Positions 25,382 through 43,842 of a stretch of 43,842 nt of DNA are shown here, in pieces (positions within the stretch are counted from its first letter, which is position 1; each line of letters starts with the position of its first letter). The stretch covers positions 1 through 43,842 of the forward strand of contig JAFMMJ010000009.1 in the NCBI GenBank assembly GCA_017859785.1. Reading direction: 5' to 3'. A program made the translations under genes and the position numbers. The stretch comes from Ilumatobacteraceae bacterium. GTDB taxonomy: Bacteria; Actinomycetota; Acidimicrobiia; Acidimicrobiales; Ilumatobacteraceae. The notes below the pieces were generated by a model. The model saw nothing but the letters and a program-made list of their open reading frames with translations. It did not search any database and was not told the DNA's origin.

Positions 25382-25477
25382 GGAGGTGTCCGCACGCCTG
25401 GTGGGTGCCGCCGCCTTCAAAGCGGTTGGGGCGGGTGTTCCCCGTCCGGCGGGTTCGATTCCCGTCCACCTCCGCCA
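25382..25477 (+). tRNA. selC: tRNA-Sec (selenocysteine, anticodon TCA)
   Basis: The 5' arm GGAGGTG (25382-25388) pairs with CACCTCC (25467-25473). The anticodon arm (25410-25414 with 25422-25426) holds the loop CTTCAAA with anticodon TCA at 25417-25419. A long variable arm pairs 25429-25435 with 25441-25447, with one G:T. The T loop is TTCGATT. The discriminator is G and CCA is encoded (25474-25477). The length, UGA-reading anticodon, long extra arm and extended acceptor are features of bacterial tRNA-Sec. The eighth acceptor pair (T25389/C25466) is a mismatch. No selA, selB or selD is in the window. Confidence 0.92.
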
Positions 25478-35534: not shown

Positions 35535-36767
35535 TCAGGCTTCCGGAGCGACGCGTCCCAACAGCCTCGCCGCCGAATGGAGTGTCTCGGCCACGCCTCC
35601 TGAGCTTCTGAATTCGGCGAGGGCGAAGCGCATGACTGTCGGGGCGCCCCACGGTGTGGTGGCGAGGGCCGCGAGGAGTCGCGCGCCGAGGGGTCTCCCG
35701 GTGAGCCGAACGATCTGCCGACCGGTCTTGTGGTGGTCGGCGTGGATCGCTCGGACCCGCGGCACGTAGGCCTGCAGCGCGTCAGGCGCGGTCCGGCTCG
35801 CCGCCGCCAGCACCTCGCCAGCCTCGATGCCGAGCCGGAGCGCGGCCTCGATGCCGGTTCCAGTCAGCGGGTTCGCGTGCCCCGCGGCATCACCCGCGAC
35901 CAGAAAGTTCGGGCCGGCGACCGGGACGATCGAGTCGCCGACTGGAGTGCGCGCGCCCTCCGCCCGCTCAGCCGCCTCCGCGGGATCAACAGTGATCCCC
36001 CATGACCCAGCGACCCGTTCGAGAAGTCGCTCAAGGAGGAGATGGAGGTTCACCGCGGTGGCGTCGCGCGCGGTCGACGCGACCTGCACACCGATGTTGA
36101 CGGTGTGGTCGTCGACGGGGAACACCCATCCGAAGCCCGGAAGGCCGTCACCCGGGCCTCGCTCGAGGTCGAGGTGGAATTCGACCCCGAACCGGTCGAG
36201 CGCGGTGTAGGGGAGCGTGACCCGGAGCGCGGAGACGGACGGCCAATCCTGTCGTCGTGACGTGCCGAGCTCGCGCCCGAAGGTGCTGTTCGCGCCATCG
36301 GCGACGAGGAGCAACTCGGCCGGCTCGGTTGACTCCTGCTCGCCGTTCGAGGTCCGAACCCCGCGTACGAACCCTCGCTCGACGATTGGTTCGATCGCCT
36401 CGCGACCGAGTTCGACCTCCACACCTAGTTCACTGGCGCGGTCGAGCAACGCTGAGTCGAGACGGCCGCGGGAGACGACGATGCCGGTGGTCTCGCCCGC
36501 GTCAGTCGACGTCGGCCACTTGATCCGCTGCCGGCGTCCTCGCGCCACCAGATCGACGAAGTCGATCGGTCGCCCAAGAGAGGCGACCTCCAGGCCGAGG
36601 GAGCCGAGGAGGTGGACAGCCCGCGGAGTGAGCAGACCACCGCACGCTTTGTCGATTGGGGCCGCCACGCCGCGACGGTCGATCAGCCGCGCGGGAACGC
36701 CTCGCTCGGCGAGCGTGATCGCCGCTGCGGTTCCGGCGGGGCCGCCGCCGATGATGAGCGGACGCAT
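35535..36767 (-). CDS. Geranylgeranyl reductase family flavoprotein (MenJ-like)
   Basis: A 410-residue FAD protein. It starts MRPLIIGGGPAGTAAAITLA, has KACGGLLTPRAVHLLGSLGL, typical of the geranylgeranyl-reductase family, and LVAGDAAGHANPLTGTGIEA as the second FAD motif. The family saturates isoprenoid double bonds in chlorophyll, archaeal lipids or menaquinone (MenJ). The neighbour is a polyprenyl synthase, and the gene follows a respiratory cytochrome c by 28 bp in the same operon. Menaquinone beta-isoprene reduction is therefore the best inference. ATG 36767 is the start; the frame is open upstream but unsupported. Confidence 0.85.
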   Translation of the reverse strand: MRPLIIGGGPAGTAAAITLAERGVPARLIDRRGVAAPIDKACGGLLTPRAVHLLGSLGLEVASLGRPIDFVDLVARGRRQRIKWPTSTDAGETTGIVVSRGRLDSALLDRASELGVEVELGREAIEPIVERGFVRGVRTSNGEQESTEPAELLLVADGANSTFGRELGTSRRQDWPSVSALRVTLPYTALDRFGVEFHLDLERGPGDGLPGFGWVFPVDDHTVNIGVQVASTARDATAVNLHLLLERLLERVAGSWGITVDPAEAAERAEGARTPVGDSIVPVAGPNFLVAGDAAGHANPLTGTGIEAALRLGIEAGEVLAAASRTAPDALQAYVPRVRAIHADHHKTGRQIVRLTGRPLGARLLAALATTPWGAPTVMRFALAEFRSSGGVAETLHSAARLLGRVAPEA

Positions 36768-36795: not shown

Positions 36796-37626
36796 TCAGT
36801 CGGCTCCGGCGGGCGACCCGGAGGCCGGGCCGTCGCCGACGGCGAGGATGCCGTCGTGCATCTCGTGGAGGGTGGCGAGCGACGCCCCCTCCTCAAGTTC
36901 GAGGAAGTACTCCGAGCTCTCCGAGCACCAGTGCTCGTACTCGTCGCCCCACTCCTCGGAGCCGGGGTCCGCTCCACTGAGGGTGTACCGCTCGTGGCAG
37001 ACGACTGACAGGATCTCGTAGTCGGTCAGGGCGCCCTCGAAACCGGGCATCGCTCCACGGGCTCCCGTGACATGCGGCCCGCCGGGTCGGTCGGGATTGC
37101 CGTAGATCTCGACGCCGGCGACGTTGTAGGCACCCGTGCCGTAGAGCACGTAGCGCAGCTGGTCCTCGATGTTCGGGAAGGTGAGGAGCACCTCTCCCTC
37201 GGTGAAGGCGTAGCCGACGCCTCCGCCTCCGGCTCCACCGTGGCAGGCCGCGCAGTTGGCGTAGATCTCGGCTCCCATGGCGAGGGGTCCACTGGCTTCC
37301 TCGGCCTGGGCAGTCACCGAACGCACGTACATGAACGTCCAGATCGGAAGGAGCGCCAGCGCCGCCATGGCCCAGAACGGCACCTTGCGCCGCGACCGAT
37401 AGGCAGCGACGACCGGCGAGTCGGGCTTTGGCGCGGGGGGCTCAGACGGAGCGGCGGCAGCCGTGCGCGGAGCGGGACCGGTGGAGGCCGGTGCCGCCGA
37501 TGCGGCCGCTGCGGGGGTGGCCTCCTTCGTGGTCGCGACCTCGGTTCCCGGGTTCTCTGAACTGTCGCCGGCAGCCGCGCGACGCTCTCGGCTTCGCTTC
37601 AGCAGGTGTTCGGGGATCTCGGTCAC
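36796..37626 (-). CDS. Membrane-anchored monoheme c-type cytochrome with IPEHLLKRS tag
   Basis: A 276-residue protein. The N-terminus is TEIPEHLLKRSRERRAA, followed by a low-complexity Ala/Pro/Thr linker (residues 20-70) and one membrane helix (82-101). The exported part holds the heme c site CAACH (Cys125-Cys128-His129) and acidic C-terminal sequences; ARGAMPGFEGALTDYEI contains a Met for the sixth ligand. GTG 37626 has AGAGGA 7 bases upstream. It diverges from the bc-complex operon and precedes the MenJ-like gene. The start motif recurs in the subunit IV protein (39818). It is likely an electron carrier of the bc complex or the terminal oxidase. Confidence 0.85.
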   Translation of the reverse strand: MTEIPEHLLKRSRERRAAAGDSSENPGTEVATTKEATPAAAASAAPASTGPAPRTAAAAPSEPPAPKPDSPVVAAYRSRRKVPFWAMAALALLPIWTFMYVRSVTAQAEEASGPLAMGAEIYANCAACHGGAGGGGVGYAFTEGEVLLTFPNIEDQLRYVLYGTGAYNVAGVEIYGNPDRPGGPHVTGARGAMPGFEGALTDYEILSVVCHERYTLSGADPGSEEWGDEYEHWCSESSEYFLELEEGASLATLHEMHDGILAVGDGPASGSPAGAD

Positions 37627-38095
37627 GCTGGTCCTCTCGAAGGGATGTCGTCCGTGTCGGGTTCGATCGTCTCGCGACTCACCCACCGGGCCGACGTCGC
37701 GCCCCCACGATAGACGGCGCGGCGGCGATCCGGCGAAACCCGTGGAGGTCGATGAGCGGGATTTTGGAGAGCTGTGCGGAGAACGTCCGAGAGAACTTAC
37801 GCACAACCCTGCATGGGGTCGGGGGGCTACTGGCAAACTGTTGATCGACCGATCGCGACGAGCGGTTCGGTCGACGCGAAAAACACCGTTAGCAAAATCG
37901 AGACAGCAAGACCGACACGACCACCAGTCGTTGGTTCTTCGAGGCTGAGTTGACCGCCGCCCTCACGGTGACGGAATGGCTCTATCGGGTGGACCTCCGA
38001 CTACAGTTGGGCGGGAGTGCGGACGGCCCGGTTCGCCGGCAGCCCACCCCCGATCGATCACGAGCACGAGATAACGAAAGGCAGCGCGACGAGTC
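37627..38095. promoter_or_regulatory. 469-bp divergent regulatory region of the respiratory locus
   Basis: No supported gene lies between the leftward cytochrome c and the rightward bc-complex operon. This is the longest non-coding stretch in the window. It includes the most AT-rich short segment here (37878-37900) and an inverted repeat, TCGACCGA at 37845-37852 with TCGGTCGA at 37867-37874 (14-base spacer). The rightward genes need a promoter here; a TTGACC at 37950-37955 is a -35 candidate without a convincing -10. The length suggests a regulated or multi-promoter region. Confidence 0.5.
37845..37874. repeat. 8-bp inverted repeat, possible operator
   Basis: The arms TCGACCGA and TCGGTCGA are perfectly complementary, separated by 14 bases, in the middle of the divergent promoter region of the respiratory locus. 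The spacing would suit a dimeric regulator. No known operator is recognised, and short GC-rich palindromes also arise by chance. Confidence 0.35.
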
Positions 38096-38578
38096 ATGTT
38101 CGCCTTCAACTGGAACGTCCTGGAGTGGCCCGGGATGAACACCGCCTTCCTCGTCTCGTTCATCGCGTCGAACGTCCTCGCGTTCGCGGTCATTCCCTAC
38201 GGCAAGCGGCGCCCCCTCGGCACACCGATGTCCTGGGGTGAGGCGATGCTCGGTTCCACCTACGTGTTCGGCGTCATGTTTCTCGCCTTCGGCATCGTTC
38301 CTCACCAGTGGATCGACCACGCCGACAAGGATCTTGGTTGGGATCGCACGAAGATCATCTACGGGCCCGGCGGGATCCTGAAGCCCCAGGCCCTCGACGG
38401 CTGGTTTCCGTTCACCCTGCAGTACGAGGCCATCCGCGACATCGTGGTGGTTGTCCTCCACGCCTATTACTTCGGTCTTGTGATCTTCCTCTGGTCCTAC
38501 TGGCAGAAGCGCGGCAAGGAAGTCAGCACCGAACTCGACACCAGCACCTACGGACGCCCACTGGTGAAGAAGGCCTGA
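38096..38578 (+). CDS. Three-helix membrane protein of unknown function, first gene of the bc-complex operon
   Basis: A 160-residue protein I do not recognise. Three membrane helices are visible: about 15-36 (TAFLVSFIASNVLAFAVIPY), 49-68 (MLGSTYVFGVMFLAFGIVP) and 120-142 (IVVVVLHAYYFGLVIFLWSY). The loop between helices 2 and 3 holds HQWIDHADKDLGWDRTK, and helix 3 contains a His (VVLHAYY), so heme or quinone contact is conceivable. GAAAGGCAGCG lies upstream of ATG 38096. The ferredoxin gene starts 1 bp after its stop. It may be a lineage-specific subunit of the complex, perhaps anchoring the ferredoxin. Confidence 0.8.
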   Translation: MFAFNWNVLEWPGMNTAFLVSFIASNVLAFAVIPYGKRRPLGTPMSWGEAMLGSTYVFGVMFLAFGIVPHQWIDHADKDLGWDRTKIIYGPGGILKPQALDGWFPFTLQYEAIRDIVVVVLHAYYFGLVIFLWSYWQKRGKEVSTELDTSTYGRPLVKKA

Positions 38579-38579
38579 T

Positions 38580-38993
38580 ATGGCGAAGACCGACGCCAAC
38601 CCCCCGATGATGCCGTTCACCGACGAGTACACGCTCGTCGAGGTCGACGCCGACTACCTCACGAAGGCGGTCAAGCCGAAGCAGTTCATCCACATCGACC
38701 AGACCGAGTGCATCATGTGCGAGGGCTGTGTCGACATCTGCCCATGGAAGTGCATCCACATGGTGCAGCCGGAGGCGATCGTCGAGTCCGAGGGAACCGA
38801 GCGCCCCGGTGACGACCCCTCCGACAACGTGGTCTTCATCATCGACGACGACATCTGCACGCGTTGCGCCCTGTGCGTCGACCGGTGCCCGACCGGGGTC
38901 ATCATCCTCGGCAAGGTCGGCCCGGCCACCGCGGCAGGCGACTCCCACACCCGAACCAACAACCATGGCTATGCCTACGGCATGCGGCTCTGA
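38580..38993 (+). CDS. 2[4Fe-4S] ferredoxin within the bc-complex operon
   Basis: A 137-residue protein with two complete cluster motifs: Cys44-x2-Cys47-x2-Cys50-x3-Cys54-Pro (ECIMCEGCVDICP) and Cys93-x2-Cys96-x2-Cys99-x3-Cys103-Pro (ICTRCALCVDRCPTG). An insertion of about 38 residues separates them, and there are an N-terminal extension (about 40) and a C-terminal tail with several His/Asn. The spacing of the two clusters is wider than in small clostridial ferredoxins and nearer to NuoI-type proteins, but no membrane-binding helix is seen. The start ATG 38580 is 1 bp after the previous stop. A ferredoxin in a bc operon is unusual. Confidence 0.9.
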   Translation: MAKTDANPPMMPFTDEYTLVEVDADYLTKAVKPKQFIHIDQTECIMCEGCVDICPWKCIHMVQPEAIVESEGTERPGDDPSDNVVFIIDDDICTRCALCVDRCPTGVIILGKVGPATAAGDSHTRTNNHGYAYGMRL

Positions 38994-39016
38994 CACCATC
39001 CGGAACGAGAACTGAC

Positions 39017-39802
39017 ATGGCAAAAATCATCGACGAGACACCACGACCGACCGCTAAGGAGCGGTTCCAGCAGACGGTCGACTCCGTTCAGGGCAGTCAG
39101 GCCTGGGCGAGCATCTTCCGTCCCGGCTCGATCTTCCGCAAGGGCTACACCGACAGCCCGAGGAACCGGAGCTACGTCATCATGAACTCGGTGCTCTACC
39201 ACCTGCACCCAGTGAAGGTGAAGCGCCATGCGGTCAAGGTCAGCTACACGCTCTGCCTCGGCGGGCTGAGCTTCTTCCTCTTCATCCTGCTCACGGTGAC
39301 CGGCATCTTCTTGATGTTCTTCTACCGACCTGAGGCGACCGCGGCTTGGGACGACATCTCCAACCTGCAGACCTCGGTCACCTTCGGACTACTCGTGAGA
39401 AATATGCATCGATGGGGCGCGCACCTCATGGTGCTCGCAGTGTTCTTGCACATGTCCCGCGTCTTTTATCACGGGGCCTACAAGCCACCACGCGAGTTCA
39501 ACTGGGTCATCGGTGTGATTTTGCTCACGCTCACGTTGCTGCTGTCGTTCACCGGCTATCTGCTCCCGTGGGACCAGCTCGCGCTCTGGGCGGTGGCGGT
39601 CGGCACCAACATGATGGGGTACACCCCGGTGTTCGGTCAGGAGGTCAGATTCGTGCTCCTCGGAGGAGCCGAGATTGGATCGGAGACACTCCTGCGTTGG
39701 TATGTGCTCCATGTGCTCTTCTTCCCATTCATCATCGTCATCTTCATGGCGATCCACTTCTGGCGCGTCCGCAAGGACGGCGGCATCAGCGGACCGCTGT
39801 GA
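39017..39802 (+). CDS. petB: Cytochrome b6-type subunit of the quinol:cytochrome c reductase
   Basis: A 261-residue protein with four membrane helices, equivalent to cytochrome b6 (the N-terminal half of cytochrome b). The heme ligands are His131/His145 and His232/His247; the second pair is 15 apart, as in b6 rather than mitochondrial cytochrome b. SFTGYLLPWDQLALWAV and the end RKDGGISGPL closely follow b6. Cys80 in TLCLGG lines up with b6 Cys35, which binds the extra heme c-n covalently. It begins 23 bp after the ferredoxin stop. The frame is open upstream, but ATG 39017 is the natural start. Confidence 0.95.
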   Translation: MAKIIDETPRPTAKERFQQTVDSVQGSQAWASIFRPGSIFRKGYTDSPRNRSYVIMNSVLYHLHPVKVKRHAVKVSYTLCLGGLSFFLFILLTVTGIFLMFFYRPEATAAWDDISNLQTSVTFGLLVRNMHRWGAHLMVLAVFLHMSRVFYHGAYKPPREFNWVIGVILLTLTLLLSFTGYLLPWDQLALWAVAVGTNMMGYTPVFGQEVRFVLLGGAEIGSETLLRWYVLHVLFFPFIIVIFMAIHFWRVRKDGGISGPL

Positions 39803-39817
39803 TCGGAGGCTGACCGA

Positions 39818-40591
39818 ATGACCGAGATTCCCGAACACTTGTTGAAGCGGGCCCAGGCGGCTCGTGAGAAGGCAGCCGAGTCGTCGGCTGAGCCCGCCGT
39901 GGAGGCAGACGCTCCGGCAGCTGAGGCCGACTCTCGTATCCCCGCGCACCTCCTCGAGCGCTCGAAAGCCGCCCGCACGAAGGCCGCGGGGGGCGAGGAG
40001 GAGTCAGGCGGCGGCGTCGCCGTTGCCGACAAGGTGGCGGCGGCTGTCGCCACTCCGGCGGCTGGCGGCGGTGTGCCGGTCGGCGCCGGCCCCGGTGGTC
40101 ACACGCAGCGCCTTCTCACCGTGGTGAAGTCGGGCTCGATCCAAGAGGTCAAGGCCCAGCCGGTCGACAAGGTCCACACCTGGCCGCATCTACTCGCCGC
40201 TGAGTTCGTCGCCTCGCTCGCCTGTCTGGTCTTCACGTTCCTGTTCTCGATCTGGGTGAACGCGCCGTTGCTTCAGCTCTCGAACCCGAACCAAACGCCG
40301 AACCCGTCGAAGGCGCCGTGGTACTTCCTCGGCCTTCAGGAGCTGCTGACGATGTTCCACCCGATGGTCGCTGGCGTGACCATTCCCGGTGTCGGCATCA
40401 TCATGTTGATCTTCGCTCCGTACATCGACAAGAACCCGTCGAACAAGCCGGAGGATCGCAAGTTCGCGACCTCCCTTATGACCGTGCACCTCATGTTCTG
40501 GGCGGTGCTCGTCATGATCGGCTCGTTCTTCCGGGGCCCTGGATTCAACTTCACGCTGCCGTGGCGTGACGGATTGTTCTTCGAGCTCTGA
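39818..40591 (+). CDS. petD: Cytochrome b subunit IV-like protein with duplicated IPEHLL tag
   Basis: A 257-residue protein. The C-terminal half is the second part of cytochrome b, with three helices and NPSKAPWYFLGLQELLTMFH; APWY replaces the PEWY of the quinol-oxidation site, as in several bacterial bc complexes. The N-terminal extension of about 135 residues is unusual. It has TEIPEHLLKRAQAAREKAA at residues 2-20 and RIPAHLLERSKAARTKAA at 40-57, two copies of the tag found in the divergent cytochrome c, joined by Ala/Glu linkers. GGAGGC precedes ATG 39818 by 8 bases. Confidence 0.92.
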   Translation: MTEIPEHLLKRAQAAREKAAESSAEPAVEADAPAAEADSRIPAHLLERSKAARTKAAGGEEESGGGVAVADKVAAAVATPAAGGGVPVGAGPGGHTQRLLTVVKSGSIQEVKAQPVDKVHTWPHLLAAEFVASLACLVFTFLFSIWVNAPLLQLSNPNQTPNPSKAPWYFLGLQELLTMFHPMVAGVTIPGVGIIMLIFAPYIDKNPSNKPEDRKFATSLMTVHLMFWAVLVMIGSFFRGPGFNFTLPWRDGLFFEL

Positions 40592-40610
40592 GGTCGAGGA
40601 GGGAAACACA

Positions 40611-41477
40611 ATGAGCGCAACCTCAGTCATCATCATCGCGGTGGTCGCCGTCGTCGTTCTCGGCGGCGCCGCGTTCGCCTCCCTTGCCCGTCGCTCTGAT
40701 GTGCGAGGGGCGGGTGCCCTCAGCGATGAGACGGTCGCTCGCGACCGGGCCGCACGCAAGGCGCGCCAGACCGCTGAAAGCGGTCCGACCGCTGCCTCGG
40801 TCGAAGCCGAAGGGGTGGCCGCTCGCGCTGGAACCGCCGTCGCCGTCGTTGAGGACCGGGCTCCGGTGCCCTTCGTGCCGGCCGATCCCGAGGCGATCGG
40901 CGTCAGTCGCCGCCAGTTCTTCAACCGCGCGACCATCTCGCTGATGTCAGCCGGTATCGGCGCGTTCGCCGCTGCCTCGTTCGTCGCCTTCCTCTGGCCC
41001 ACCAAGACCGGCGGCTTCGGCGGCAAGGTCCCGGTCGGTCGCTATGACGACATCGTGTCGGGTATCCGCCAGGGTCAGGGCTTCTTCTACGCCCCCGAGG
41101 CCCGCGCTTGGATCACCGAGTACCCGGTCGACGCGGTGCCGAAGGCCGAGGGTGTGTACAAAGAGTCGGTGCTCGCTGGAATGCGGCGCGGCTTGATCGC
41201 TTCGTACCAGAAGTGTCCGCATCTCGGTTGTCGCGTGCCGCAGTGCACGTCGAGCCAGTGGTTCGAGTGCGGCTGTCACGGCTCGCAGTACAACCGAGTC
41301 GGGGAGAAGAAGGGTGGCCCGGCCCCCCGTGGCATGGACCACTTCCCTCTCGAGTTCACTGCGGCGGGCGACGTGCTCGTCGACACCGGCACGATTGTCC
41401 AAGGTGTCCCGATCGGTGTGAACACCACTGGTCAGGAGGCCGAGGGCCCTCACTGCGTGGGAGCGAGTGATCACTGA
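40611..41477 (+). CDS. Rieske iron-sulfur protein
   Basis: A 288-residue protein with a membrane helix at 5-25, a charged Ala-rich linker, a twin-arginine segment (SRRQFF at 99-104) and a second helix (108-129), then the Rieske domain. The cluster ligands are Cys202 and His204 (CPHLGC) and Cys220 and His223 (CGCHGSQY), with Cys207-Cys222 as the disulfide; an extra Cys212 lies between them. The loop before the second motif is short. GAGGAGGGAAACACA precedes ATG 40611. The twin-arginine signal fits export of a folded cluster. Its stop overlaps the next ATG (TGATG). Confidence 0.94.
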   Translation: MSATSVIIIAVVAVVVLGGAAFASLARRSDVRGAGALSDETVARDRAARKARQTAESGPTAASVEAEGVAARAGTAVAVVEDRAPVPFVPADPEAIGVSRRQFFNRATISLMSAGIGAFAAASFVAFLWPTKTGGFGGKVPVGRYDDIVSGIRQGQGFFYAPEARAWITEYPVDAVPKAEGVYKESVLAGMRRGLIASYQKCPHLGCRVPQCTSSQWFECGCHGSQYNRVGEKKGGPAPRGMDHFPLEFTAAGDVLVDTGTIVQGVPIGVNTTGQEAEGPHCVGASDH

Positions 41478-42538
41478 TGCTGGCCCTGACCACCACCAAC
41501 ATCGCCTGGTTGCTGCTGCTCGTCATTACGGCGGGCTTCATCGTCTACGCGGTCCTGAACATCCGCCAGTCGCGCGCCGAACTCGGCTCGGAGATCGAGC
41601 TCGCTCCGAACCGCAAGGAGTACTACGACGACGAGACCCTCGAGGGCAGCCGTCTCGAGCGGGTTCAGCTGCTCGGAGTGCTCCTGCTTGTCGTGGTCGT
41701 GATCGGCCTCCCCGTCTACTGGGTGCTTGAGCCGGGTCGTCAGGCCGGAGCGGTCGAGGCCCAGGAGGAGATCTTCACCGAGTGGGGTCGCCGCCTCTTC
41801 GCTCCGACCGCCGAGGGTGGGTTCAACTGCGCCGGATGCCACGGCGGCTACGCCGGTGGCGGTGGCGAGGCGGCGTGGAACGTGACCGACGCGAAGACCG
41901 GTGAGGTCGAGGCCGTCAACTGGAAGGCGCCGGCCCTCGACACGATCTTCTATCGATTCGACGAGGACGAGGTGCGCTTCATCCTCGTCTACGGCCGTCC
42001 GTTCTCGCCGATGAGCCCGTGGGGCGTCGAGGGCGGAGGTCCGATGAACGACCAGCAGATCGACACGCTCATCTCCTATCTCTGGTCGATCCAGGTCGAG
42101 CGCGAGGACTGCGGCGTCGGCGAGGACGACCCGCGGAGTTGCCCGTCGGGGCACCTCCCCACCGACATGCAGGACGACATCGAGACGCGCGCTCGTCAAC
42201 TGGTCGCCGATGGCACCTACGCCTCCTACGGCGAGGCGCTCTTTAACCTCGACCTCGGTAGCGGCGCCTACAGCTGCGCGCGTTGCCATACCCCCGGTTG
42301 GAGCTGGGGTGACCCTGGCGTGACCGGTCAGGGTGGCTTCGGATGGAACCTCACCGGGGGCAAGGCGAACACCGTGTTCCCGAACGAGGACGACATGATC
42401 GACTTCATCAGCAACGGTTCGGTCTACGGCGCGAAGTACGGAGTTCAGGGTCAGGGGAGCGGCCGGATGCCCGGCTTCGGTGCATTGCTCACCGATGAGC
42501 AGCTCACCGCCGTCGTCGAGTACGTGCGGGGTCTGTGA
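41477..42538 (+). CDS. Membrane-bound diheme cytochrome c
   Basis: A 353-residue protein with two N-terminal membrane helices (9-27 and 64-84) and two exported cytochrome c domains, with heme sites CAGCH (118-122) and CARCH (267-271). GRMPGFGALLTDEQL near the C-terminus supplies a likely Met ligand, and PMSPWGVEGGGPMNDQQ a second. Between the domains is a Cys-containing loop (REDCGVGEDDPRSCPSGH). In this position it would take electrons from the Rieske protein and replace cytochrome c1 or f. It overlaps its neighbours by one base on each side. Confidence 0.92.
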   Translation: MLALTTTNIAWLLLLVITAGFIVYAVLNIRQSRAELGSEIELAPNRKEYYDDETLEGSRLERVQLLGVLLLVVVVIGLPVYWVLEPGRQAGAVEAQEEIFTEWGRRLFAPTAEGGFNCAGCHGGYAGGGGEAAWNVTDAKTGEVEAVNWKAPALDTIFYRFDEDEVRFILVYGRPFSPMSPWGVEGGGPMNDQQIDTLISYLWSIQVEREDCGVGEDDPRSCPSGHLPTDMQDDIETRARQLVADGTYASYGEALFNLDLGSGAYSCARCHTPGWSWGDPGVTGQGGFGWNLTGGKANTVFPNEDDMIDFISNGSVYGAKYGVQGQGSGRMPGFGALLTDEQLTAVVEYVRGL

Positions 42539-43365
42539 TGGTGTCGATGCTGCTCGCCGTCAACTGGGAACCCGAACTCCGTGGTCTTCTCACGGTCGTC
42601 CTCGGTCTCATCGCCTTCATGGGATCGGTGTACCTCATCCTCGGGACCAACCTCGGTGCCCGCCTCGGCTTCCTCGTCGCGCTCACCGGTCTCGCCGGAT
42701 GGATGGCGCTGATGGGAGCCATCTGGTGGATCTACGGCATCGGCTTGAAGGGCGAGGATCCGTCGTGGCATCAGGTGCCCGGGCGCACCGTGATTCAAGA
42801 CCCCGATGGTCTCTATCAGGCCGGCGTGTTCGAGCAGCGGCTCGCCGTGTCCCCTGACGCTCCGCTCGACGTGCTGGCCGATGGCATCGTCGACCAGTTC
42901 GTCGACGAGGGATGGCGCGTGGTCGGTGAGGCCGAGCCGGCGTTCGGTCAAGCTGAGGCTTCGGCGACGGTGTTCCTCGAGGAGGAGGGCGCGTTCGCGC
43001 CCGGCGAGTTCGACGTGACCCATGTCTACGAGGTCGGCGGCGAGGCGTATCCGAAGCTCTTCGGTCTCGATGCCCTCGATCAGATCGCGTTCTTCCACAA
43101 GCCGTACTACACCGTGGTCGAGGTGGCGCCGTATCTGCCGCTGAGGGAGGAGCCGGGTCGCGCTCCGTCCCCGCCCGAGATCGATTCGAGCCGCGAGCGT
43201 CAGTACGTCTACATGATCCGCGATCTCGGCTCTCGCCGAGAGCCGGCGGCGCTTATCACGATCGGATCGACGATCGTGTTCCTCGCGCTCTGCTGGATGC
43301 TTCACCGACGTGATCGGTTCGTGGCTGAGAACCTCGAACGGAAGGCACTCGCCACGTCGGCGTGA
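42538..43365 (+). CDS. Membrane protein of unknown function between bc complex and nuo genes
   Basis: A 275-residue protein I do not recognise. Two N-terminal helices (RGLLTVVLGLIAFMGSVYL and LGFLVALTGLAGWMALMGAI), an exported domain of about 160 residues (from GEDPSWHQVPGRTVIQDPDG), and a C-terminal helix (PAALITIGSTIVFLALCWML). The middle domain has no cysteines, so no heme c. It overlaps the cytochrome c stop by one base (TGATG; a GTG at 42535 is the alternative) and the nuoA start by four. It is probably an accessory subunit of the reductase, or a bridge to Complex I. Confidence 0.78.
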   Translation: MVSMLLAVNWEPELRGLLTVVLGLIAFMGSVYLILGTNLGARLGFLVALTGLAGWMALMGAIWWIYGIGLKGEDPSWHQVPGRTVIQDPDGLYQAGVFEQRLAVSPDAPLDVLADGIVDQFVDEGWRVVGEAEPAFGQAEASATVFLEEEGAFAPGEFDVTHVYEVGGEAYPKLFGLDALDQIAFFHKPYYTVVEVAPYLPLREEPGRAPSPPEIDSSRERQYVYMIRDLGSRREPAALITIGSTIVFLALCWMLHRRDRFVAENLERKALATSA

Positions 43366-43842
43366 CCTCGACGATGTCCCAGTACCTCCCCATCGTCGTT
43401 CTTCTGATCTTGGCGACGCTCTTCGGAGCGTTGAGCTTCGTGGCATCTCGACTACTGGCGCCGCGCCGTCCGTCGGTGGCCAAGGAAGCACCCTACGAAT
43501 GCGGAATCGTGCCGAGCCGTGAACCGCCTGAGCGGTTTCCGGTCAGCTTCTACATCGTCGCGATGCTCTTCATTATGTTCGACATCGAGATCATCTTCCT
43601 CTACCCCTACGCCGTGGAGCGCGGTGCTCTCGGCGCCTTCGGCTTCTGGGCGATCCTCGGTTTCTCTCTGGTGTTCTTCCTCACCTTCGTCTACGAGGTG
43701 GCCAAGGGTGGTCTCGACTGGGGCCCCCTCCAGCGCTACCGCGACCTGAGTGTCGACGCGCGAATGGTCTCGGCCGGACGCGACTCCTCCTCGACGATCC
43801 GTCGGGTCGGCCTCGAGGGTCGTACCCCGACGAACGATGGAT
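43362..43842 (+). CDS. nuoA: NADH-quinone oxidoreductase subunit A, partial (runs off the window)
   Basis: The frame from GTG 43362 (GTGA overlap with the upstream stop; ATG 43374 is the alternative) stays open to the end of the window. It has the NuoA features: an N-terminal helix, AKEAPYECGIVPSREPP, and FPVSFYIVAMLFIMFDIEII then FLYPYAVERG, followed by a third helix. NuoA is a membrane subunit of Complex I. The conserved part ends at about GGLDWGPLQRY, but at least 35 more residues follow, so there is a C-terminal extension. The 3' end is not in the window. Confidence 0.93.
   Translation, partial: MTSTMSQYLPIVVLLILATLFGALSFVASRLLAPRRPSVAKEAPYECGIVPSREPPERFPVSFYIVAMLFIMFDIEIIFLYPYAVERGALGAFGFWAILGFSLVFFLTFVYEVAKGGLDWGPLQRYRDLSVDARMVSAGRDSSSTIRRVGLEGRTPTNDG

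What the first reader, a model, noticed from the sequence alone, without database searches (positions are those of the whole stretch)
38096..43365. Modified b6f-like quinol:cytochrome c reductase with a ferredoxin and two unknown membrane subunits
The operon order is unknown 3-helix protein, 2[4Fe-4S] ferredoxin, cytochrome b6, subunit IV, Rieske, diheme cytochrome c, unknown membrane protein, then nuoA. Known actinobacterial complexes (QcrCAB) have a single long cytochrome b and no ferredoxin. A ferredoxin in the middle of a bc operon suggests that the complex may exchange electrons with a low-potential donor, or that the ferredoxin belongs to Complex I. The order and cofactor motifs are seen; the joint complex is inferred.
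Basis: partly seen in the sequence, partly recalled or inferred. Interest (0 to 1): 0.78.

Follow-up and report, generated by a model that had tools for sequence, protein, structure and literature searches.

The report
Respiratory bc complex with built-in ferredoxin
A conserved set of seven genes in several branches of the Actinomycetota probably encodes a respiratory complex that, unlike the textbook version, carries its own ferredoxin and two membrane proteins of unknown kind, so it may let ferredoxin exchange electrons with the quinone pool.

Summary
Seven close-packed genes at 38096-43365 encode an unknown 3-helix protein (orf1), a 2[4Fe-4S] ferredoxin, cytochrome b6, subunit IV, Rieske protein, diheme cytochrome c and an unknown membrane protein (orf7); nuoA follows. 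This b6 is the genome's only Cytochrome_B match. In an even draw of 296 genomes of the phylum, 90 of 99 b6-type loci have this ferredoxin directly upstream, in 24 families. In 100 further b6 loci all seven genes were found in 70; 25 of the other 30 are cut by a contig end. In the order, six genomes with only a weak, probably QcrB-type cytochrome b match lack ferredoxin and orf1. Elsewhere the seven genes stand without nuoA in 28 of 28 loci with room to see it, and two nuo operons have their own NuoI, so the ferredoxin belongs to the bc unit. The heme-ci cysteine of b6 is present in 155 of 155 sequences. Most likely: a b6-type menaquinol:cytochrome c reductase with a cytoplasmic ferredoxin subunit exchanging electrons at heme ci. 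The unit is well supported; the route is inferred. Five genomes lack the ferredoxin, so it is accessory.

The parts
38096..38578 (+). orf1: 160-aa membrane protein with three predicted TM helices, inferred cytoplasmic C-terminal tail (YGRPLVKKA); constant partner of b6
   Evidence: (AlphaFold mean pLDDT 79.5, helices 16-38, 47-78, 110-138); no Pfam/NCBIfam match; just upstream of b6 or of the ferredoxin across the phylum
38580..38993 (+). 2[4Fe-4S] ferredoxin, 137 aa, no TM helix, weakly NuoI-like; CPWxCI motif
   Evidence: (141 of 142 sequences of 85 aa or more carry both four-Cys motifs)
39017..39802 (+). cytochrome b6 (N-terminal half of cytochrome b) with a long N-terminal extension and the heme-ci cysteine (CLGG)
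   Evidence: Cys aligned with Cys35 of plant b6; CLGG in 155 of 155
39818..40591 (+). subunit IV (C-terminal half of cytochrome b), Qo motif APWY; N-terminal IPEHLL and IPAHLL motifs
40611..41477 (+). Rieske [2Fe-2S] subunit
41477..42538 (+). diheme cytochrome c with two N-terminal TM helices and a positively charged loop between them
   Evidence: one CXXCH only in some other families
42538..43365 (+). orf7: membrane protein, two N-terminal TM helices, a soluble domain inferred to face the outside (p-side), one C-terminal TM helix
   Evidence: (mean pLDDT 81.9); no Pfam/NCBIfam match; present in the 70 complete clusters
36796..37836 (-). divergent monoheme cytochrome c with one TM helix (start uncertain; relatives suggest a start at the TEIPEHLL motif); candidate eighth component in Acidimicrobiia
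35535..36767 (-). geranylgeranyl/menaquinone-reductase-like flavoprotein, neighbour in many loci of the order
43362..43842 (+). nuoA, first gene of complex I, overlapping orf7; the frame runs off the window

Best explanation
The seven genes encode one menaquinol:cytochrome c oxidoreductase of the split (b6/subunit IV) type. Menaquinol is oxidised at the Qo site; one electron goes through the Rieske cluster to the cytochrome c subunit and on to a cytochrome c oxidase, the other through hemes bL and bH to heme ci at the cytoplasmic side. The ferredoxin subunit sits at the cytoplasmic face, held by the cytoplasmic tails of orf1, b6 and subunit IV, and passes electrons to heme ci. Ferredoxin reduced by enzymes such as the 2-oxoacid:acceptor oxidoreductase of this genome can then feed the menaquinone pool. 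orf1 is a scaffold for the n-side; orf7 puts a domain on the p-side beside the Rieske and cytochrome c heads. Shown: the genes, their motifs, the conserved order, co-occurrence with b6 and not with nuo, the conserved heme-ci cysteine, the dispensability of the ferredoxin. Inferred: that it is one physical complex (about 0.8), the topology, and the ferredoxin-heme ci route (a little over one half, given the complex).
For: Order kept in 33 of 40 fetched loci of the order (5 of the other 7 run into a contig end) and in 70 of 100 further b6 loci (two places in that set are counted twice). Ferredoxin directly upstream of b6 in 90 of 99 b6-type loci of a 296-genome phylum draw, gap -22 to 175 nt; a 91st (G173, L207) was found later with a wider profile. 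In 61 genomes of the order, six with only a weak cytochrome b match (79-93 bits, probably QcrB-type) lack both ferredoxin and orf1. Ferredoxin-b6 distance correlation 0.96, the highest of 21 pairs in 70 loci. Heme-ci Cys in 155 of 155 b6. Seven genes without nuoA in 28 of 28 loci with room to see it (27 distinct places); NuoI and NuoF signatures in two nuo operons. Own genome has a 2-oxoacid:acceptor oxidoreductase alpha subunit, TIGR03710 642 bits over cut-off 483, and two COX1 matches. PMC9342900 (passages) describes ferredoxin to heme cn to plastoquinone as a proposed route in b6f.
Against: No protein was purified and no multimer could be predicted. Ferredoxin is absent beside b6 in G174, G225, G205, G185 and G344 although the heme-ci Cys stays in those read, so neither the core complex nor the cysteine depends on it; G117 is unresolved. 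Distance correlations are confounded by shared descent. The ferredoxin's potential is unknown. Of four distinct ferredoxin-less orf1 tails, two have lost the GGY[K/R] end and two keep their tail wholly or partly, so an orf1-ferredoxin contact is only suggested.
Confidence: 0.5

Rival explanations
1. The ferredoxin is a subunit of the complex but not an electron path to quinone: it is a structural or redox-sensing cap on the cytoplasmic side that tunes turnover, as regulatory subunits do in b6f.
For: Loss in five genomes with the rest of the cluster kept where it was read; a regulatory n-side subunit, PetP, binds near heme cn in cyanobacterial b6f (PMC9342900, passages).
Against: Both four-cysteine motifs are conserved in 141 of 142 sequences, more than a purely structural role needs.
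Confidence: 0.25
2. orf1 and the ferredoxin are assembly factors for b6 (for instance reductive attachment of heme ci) rather than stable subunits.
For: Both lie immediately before b6; orf1 is a small membrane protein found in 94 of 100 b6 loci, five of the other six having no room for it.
Against: Ferredoxin-less genomes keep the heme-ci Cys in b6. The heme-ci assembly factors of b6f that I recall are not ferredoxins (recalled, not tested).
Confidence: 0.1
3. The ferredoxin reduces the neighbouring geranylgeranyl/menaquinone-reductase-like flavoprotein (35535-36767), which saturates the menaquinone tail; its place beside b6 is regulatory.
For: The reductase gene is nearby in 33 of 40 loci and in L095-L097. 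Archaeal relatives use ferredoxin (recalled).
Against: In one search it was seen in only 11 of the 35 complete Acidimicrobiia-type loci that show it or have 3.5 kb or more upstream of b6, and in none of the other 31 complete loci, 27 of which have that room. The ferredoxin tracks b6.
Confidence: 0.07
4. The ferredoxin is a stray or accessory subunit of complex I, whose operon follows.
For: nuoA overlaps orf7, and the best NCBIfam match is NuoI at 48.7 bits, far below its cut-off of 113.
Against: NuoI and NuoF signatures of their own in the nuo operons of two relatives; 28 of 28 complete clusters outside the Acidimicrobiia-type loci with 700 nt or more after orf7 have no nuoA there.
Confidence: 0.03

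Closest known systems
Cytochrome b6f complex (cyanobacteria, chloroplasts)
   Same: Split cytochrome b, Rieske protein, heme-ci cysteine aligned with Cys35; proposed ferredoxin entry at heme cn (PMC9342900, passages)
   Different: No cytochrome f model matched in the cluster; a diheme cytochrome c instead; a dedicated ferredoxin gene and two unknown membrane proteins; Qo motif APWY
Heliobacterial Rieske/cytochrome b complex (PetABCD)
   Same: b6, subunit IV, Rieske and a diheme cytochrome c (PMC7143216, passages)
   Different: Those passages name no ferredoxin, orf1 or orf7 as part of it
Actinobacterial cytochrome bcc (QcrCAB)
   Same: Menaquinol:cytochrome c reductase with a diheme cytochrome c in the same phylum
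   Different: Single long cytochrome b; window b6 scores 116 bits against a cut-off of 500 for QcrB; six relatives with only a weak, probably QcrB-type match lack the ferredoxin and orf1
Geobacter Ext cluster (ExtO Rieske, ExtP b, ExtQ)
   Same: Window b6 passes the ExtP model, 308 bits over cut-off 290
   Different: Ext has multiheme cytochromes, a porin and a rhodanese; ExtO is a Rieske protein, and 'ferredoxin' does not occur in the main text (PMC5877670, passages). The ExtP name looks like over-annotation here
Split-b complexes of Nitrospina and relatives
   Same: Non-photosynthetic b6/subunit IV (PMC3578206, passages)
   Different: An octaheme cytochrome c lies beside it; no ferredoxin is mentioned in the passage on that operon

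Membership tests
Rieske/cytochrome b (bc/b6f) superfamily | cytochrome b, or b6 plus subunit IV | tested here: met
   Pfam PF00033 157 bits and PF00032 33.5 bits, both over cut-off
Rieske/cytochrome b (bc/b6f) superfamily | Rieske [2Fe-2S] protein with both ligand boxes | tested here: met
   PF00355 32.5 bits over cut-off; both boxes in 117 of 121 homologues
Rieske/cytochrome b (bc/b6f) superfamily | c-type cytochrome partner | tested here: met
   two CXXCH in the 41477-42538 product; Cytochrom_C and Cytochrome_CBB3 over cut-off
Rieske/cytochrome b (bc/b6f) superfamily | quinol:cytochrome c reductase activity | not testable with these tools
   needs biochemistry
cytochrome b6f complex in the strict sense | heme-ci cysteine in b6 | tested here: met
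   aligned with Cys35; 155 of 155
cytochrome b6f complex in the strict sense | cytochrome f encoded in the cluster | tested here: not met
   the c-type subunit matches only Cytochrome_CBB3, Cytochrom_C and CCP_MauG models in Pfam; the rest of the genome was not searched for cytochrome f
cytochrome b6f complex in the strict sense | small subunits PetG/L/M/N | not tested
   no search made
actinobacterial QcrCAB | single long cytochrome b (QcrB) | tested here: not met
   NF050120 116 bits against cut-off 500; b is split
actinobacterial QcrCAB | QcrC-type diheme cytochrome c | tested here: not met
   NF050122 12.7 bits against cut-off 200
Geobacter Ext cluster | ExtP-type b6 | tested here: met
   NF040969 308 bits over 290
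Geobacter Ext cluster | ExtQ membrane protein | tested here: not met
   NF040970 43 bits against cut-off 150
Complex I subunit NuoI | NuoI model score over cut-off | tested here: not met
   TIGR01971 48.7 bits against 113; a separate NuoI signature in L210 and L211

The most novel reading that the evidence does not exclude
This is a three-way redox junction that was probably present early in the Actinomycetota: a respiratory bc complex with its own 2[4Fe-4S] subunit wired to heme ci, so that menaquinol, cytochrome c and cytoplasmic ferredoxin meet in one enzyme. It would be a natural, genetically fixed form of the ferredoxin:quinone reductase activity long proposed for b6f, and perhaps reversible, drawing low-potential electrons from the Q cycle.
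Probability: 0.37. Interest if true: 0.88.

Novelty: new variant of a known kind. Interest (0 to 1): 0.7.

Why it matters
Whether ferredoxin can pass electrons to quinone through heme ci of a bc-type complex is an open question in cyclic photosynthetic electron flow (PMC9342900, passages). A bacterial complex whose ferredoxin is encoded beside b6, with relatives that lack only that gene, gives a direct comparison. It also shows that a good part of the phylum (b6-type loci in 98 of 296 drawn genomes) has a respiratory complex III whose two extra membrane proteins match no family model in the window genome, and whose b6 a current model would name as a selenite/tellurite reduction cytochrome.

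Tried and rejected
Complex I ownership of the ferredoxin: rejected. Chance neighbourhood: rejected. Known fold for orf1 or orf7: Foldseek against PDB gave no match at E <= 0.001 (best 3.3 for orf1; 0.013 for orf7). VIA-align of Foldseek's own candidates gave best Z 9.3 (orf1, against a designed channel) and 6.3 (orf7), within what the tool's note calls common for unrelated folds. Some SdhC/SdhD chains of complex II appear among the orf1 rows at Z 4.2-5.5 with rmsd 7.6-9.9; I read no kinship into them. phmmer of orf1 against PDB sequences gave cocaine esterases at E 0.004-0.009 over about 75 residues and weaker light-harvesting proteins (E 0.4 and above), taken as chance. One orf7 homologue (L195) passes the Biotin_lipoyl cut-off; the other three orf7 homologues scanned do not. 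A count of the IP[E/A]HLL motif against the upstream cytochrome c outside Acidimicrobiia was muddied because that cytochrome's profile cross-matches the diheme protein, so I make no claim from it. Literature: searches (open-licence PubMed Central only) listed no paper whose title or shown abstract start describes a ferredoxin in such an operon; I read passages of six papers only, and subscription papers are not held. Names of families f35, f40, f41, f44, f67, f70, f75 and f83 are unknown. The groups 'Acidimicrobiia-type' and 'other' are my split by locus number, guided by record titles and kinship labels.
Full report
Where it is. The window is a whole 43,842-base contig of a 1.96 Mb genome, 98.8% complete. 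Its family f1 is most likely Ilumatobacteraceae (Acidimicrobiia): contig G031:C65 has the same length, 21,966, as a named Ilumatobacteraceae contig, and G027 is a 4,830,181-base single contig, which I recall as the length of Ilumatobacter coccineus. The genome has one Cytochrome_B match, so this should be its only bc-type complex; there are five Rieske-domain matches and two COX1 matches.

What is there. b6 is closest to solved b6f cytochrome b6, and its CLGG cysteine aligns with Cys35 of spinach and cyanobacterial b6, the attachment site of heme ci (position recalled; the heme itself is described in PMC9162462, passages). The ferredoxin has two C-x2-C-x2-C-x3-C-P motifs and no TM helix. orf1 and orf7 have no Pfam or NCBIfam match. 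Of their distant homologues, eight were scanned in Pfam (weak sub-threshold hits, and one Biotin_lipoyl match over its cut-off) and three in NCBIfam (none).

Conservation in the order. I fetched up to 15.8 kb round b6 from 40 places in 39 relatives. In 33 of 40 all seven genes follow in order, and in all 33 nuoA follows orf7 (L066 has a cut orf1). Of the other seven, L043, L046, L051, L055 and L064 run into a contig end; L071 has ferredoxin and b6 but the orf1 of that genome lies on another contig beside a second, partial ferredoxin; L058 is a lone b6 duplicate in a genome that has a full cluster elsewhere. Over 61 genomes, orf1 was found in 54 and the ferredoxin in 53. Six genomes with only a weak b match of 79-93 bits (G039, G043, G050, G055, G056, G057; probably QcrB-type, not read further) lack both. 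G014 lacks all three. G045 (70% complete) has b6 and orf1 but no ferredoxin. G011 and G029 have ferredoxin and orf1 but no b6-type match; both are fragmented assemblies.

Conservation in the phylum. In an even draw of 296 genomes, an orf1 profile matched 46. The tool made loci of the best 30, and I read those: in 30 of 30, orf1 lies upstream of b6, with the ferredoxin between them in 27. 90 have the ferredoxin directly upstream, in 24 families: 19 outside the order and 5 in it. The nine others: four in f72 (G174, G225, G205, G185), and G344, G117, G173, G085 and G294. G173 does have one on closer reading (L207); G085 has one on another contig; G294's b6 starts at the first base of its contig; G117 is unresolved. 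A search of these genomes at 1e-8 found none in G174 (a single-contig genome), G225, G205, G185, G117 and G294, and in G344 only a 38-bit match some 13.6 kb away. Conversely four ferredoxin rows have no counted b6 beside them: G085, G223 (a b6 fragment lies there), G242 and G287. Twenty further regions show the same order wherever they are not cut, apart from the ferredoxin-less ones.

Over 100 b6 loci (L110-L209: 80 named ones and 20; L127/L205 and L129/L209 are the same places), the ferredoxin is present in 94 and orf1 in 94. Five of the six without orf1 begin within about 600 nt of b6; the sixth, L178, is a lone b6. The six without ferredoxin are L127, L203, L204, L205, L206 and L178. 70 loci hold all seven genes. 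Of the other 30, 25 are cut by a contig end, four (three places) lack only the ferredoxin, and one is the lone b6.

Which complex the ferredoxin belongs to. Among the 70, the 39 Acidimicrobiia-type loci all have nuoA next. Of the 31 others, 28 (27 places) have at least 700 nt after orf7 and none of them has nuoA there; three are too short to tell. The nuo operons of G003 and G027 carry their own NuoF and NuoI signatures. The ferredoxin therefore goes with b6. In 70 loci the ferredoxin and b6 distance matrices correlate at 0.96, the highest of 21 pairs (0.65 to 0.96), though shared descent inflates all of them.

Mechanism. Both four-Cys motifs are kept in 141 of 142 ferredoxin sequences of 85 aa or more (the exception, L207, was cut short in the profile match), and CLGG in 155 of 155 b6. 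The cytochrome c subunit, by contrast, has two CXXCH in most of the loci listed but one in others (L192-L194, L196, L197, L200, L201, L206, L207; L206 is cut by the contig end). A ferredoxin without TM helix should lie in the cytoplasm, the side of heme ci; I ran no signal-peptide predictor. The genome encodes a 2-oxoacid:acceptor oxidoreductase alpha subunit, a likely source of reduced ferredoxin. Ferredoxin to heme cn to quinone is the route proposed, not proven, for b6f (PMC9342900, passages seen). I infer that here the donor has become a subunit. orf1 ends in lineage-specific tails such as GGY[K/R], KGYxxGK or YGRPLVKK. Of four distinct ferredoxin-less tails two have lost it (L203, L204), one keeps GGYR (L205) and one keeps a partial form (L206); this hints at a contact and proves nothing.

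Against. No biochemistry exists here. The ferredoxin can be missing while b6 keeps its heme-ci cysteine, so it is an accessory. Its potential is unknown. orf1 and orf7 have AlphaFold models of moderate confidence (mean pLDDT 79.5 and 81.9) from shallow alignments (17 and 16 rows) and no clear fold match. Topologies rest on hydropathy and charge.

Verdict. A real, widely conserved seven-gene unit: a new variant of the split-b bc complex. The unit is well supported; the electron route is a testable inference.

Noticed in passing
window 36796-37836 (-) and 39818-40591 (+): The divergent cytochrome c and subunit IV share an IPEHLLKR / IPAHLLER motif. DNA that can encode IP[E/A/D]HLL-type hexapeptides occurs three times in the whole genome, all in these two genes. 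It may mark a shared binding partner.
   Followed up: partly
window 25382-25477 (+): A selenocysteine tRNA gene; selenoprotein genes and SelA/SelB were not sought in the genome.
   Followed up: no
window 39017-39802: b6 passes NCBIfam's ExtP 'selenite/tellurite reduction' model (308 over 290 bits), although none of the neighbours tested passes an Ext model: a likely source of misleading annotation.
   Followed up: partly
L058 7001-7786 and L178 6001-6741: Lone b6 genes without any partner gene; in G031 (L058) the genome has a full cluster elsewhere.
   Followed up: partly
G008:C98, G023:C1, G025:C1, G028:C54 and others: A second class of b6-like proteins, 49-56% identical to the window's, in some genomes; their neighbourhoods were not read.
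   Followed up: no
L195 1819-2850 (-): An orf7 homologue with a Biotin_lipoyl match (26.3 over cut-off 22.1) in its soluble part; a similar fold occurs in the small domain of cytochrome f (recalled).
   Followed up: no
G039, G043, G050, G055, G056, G057: Members of the same order with only a weak, probably QcrB-type cytochrome b match: complex III may have been replaced within the order.
   Followed up: partly
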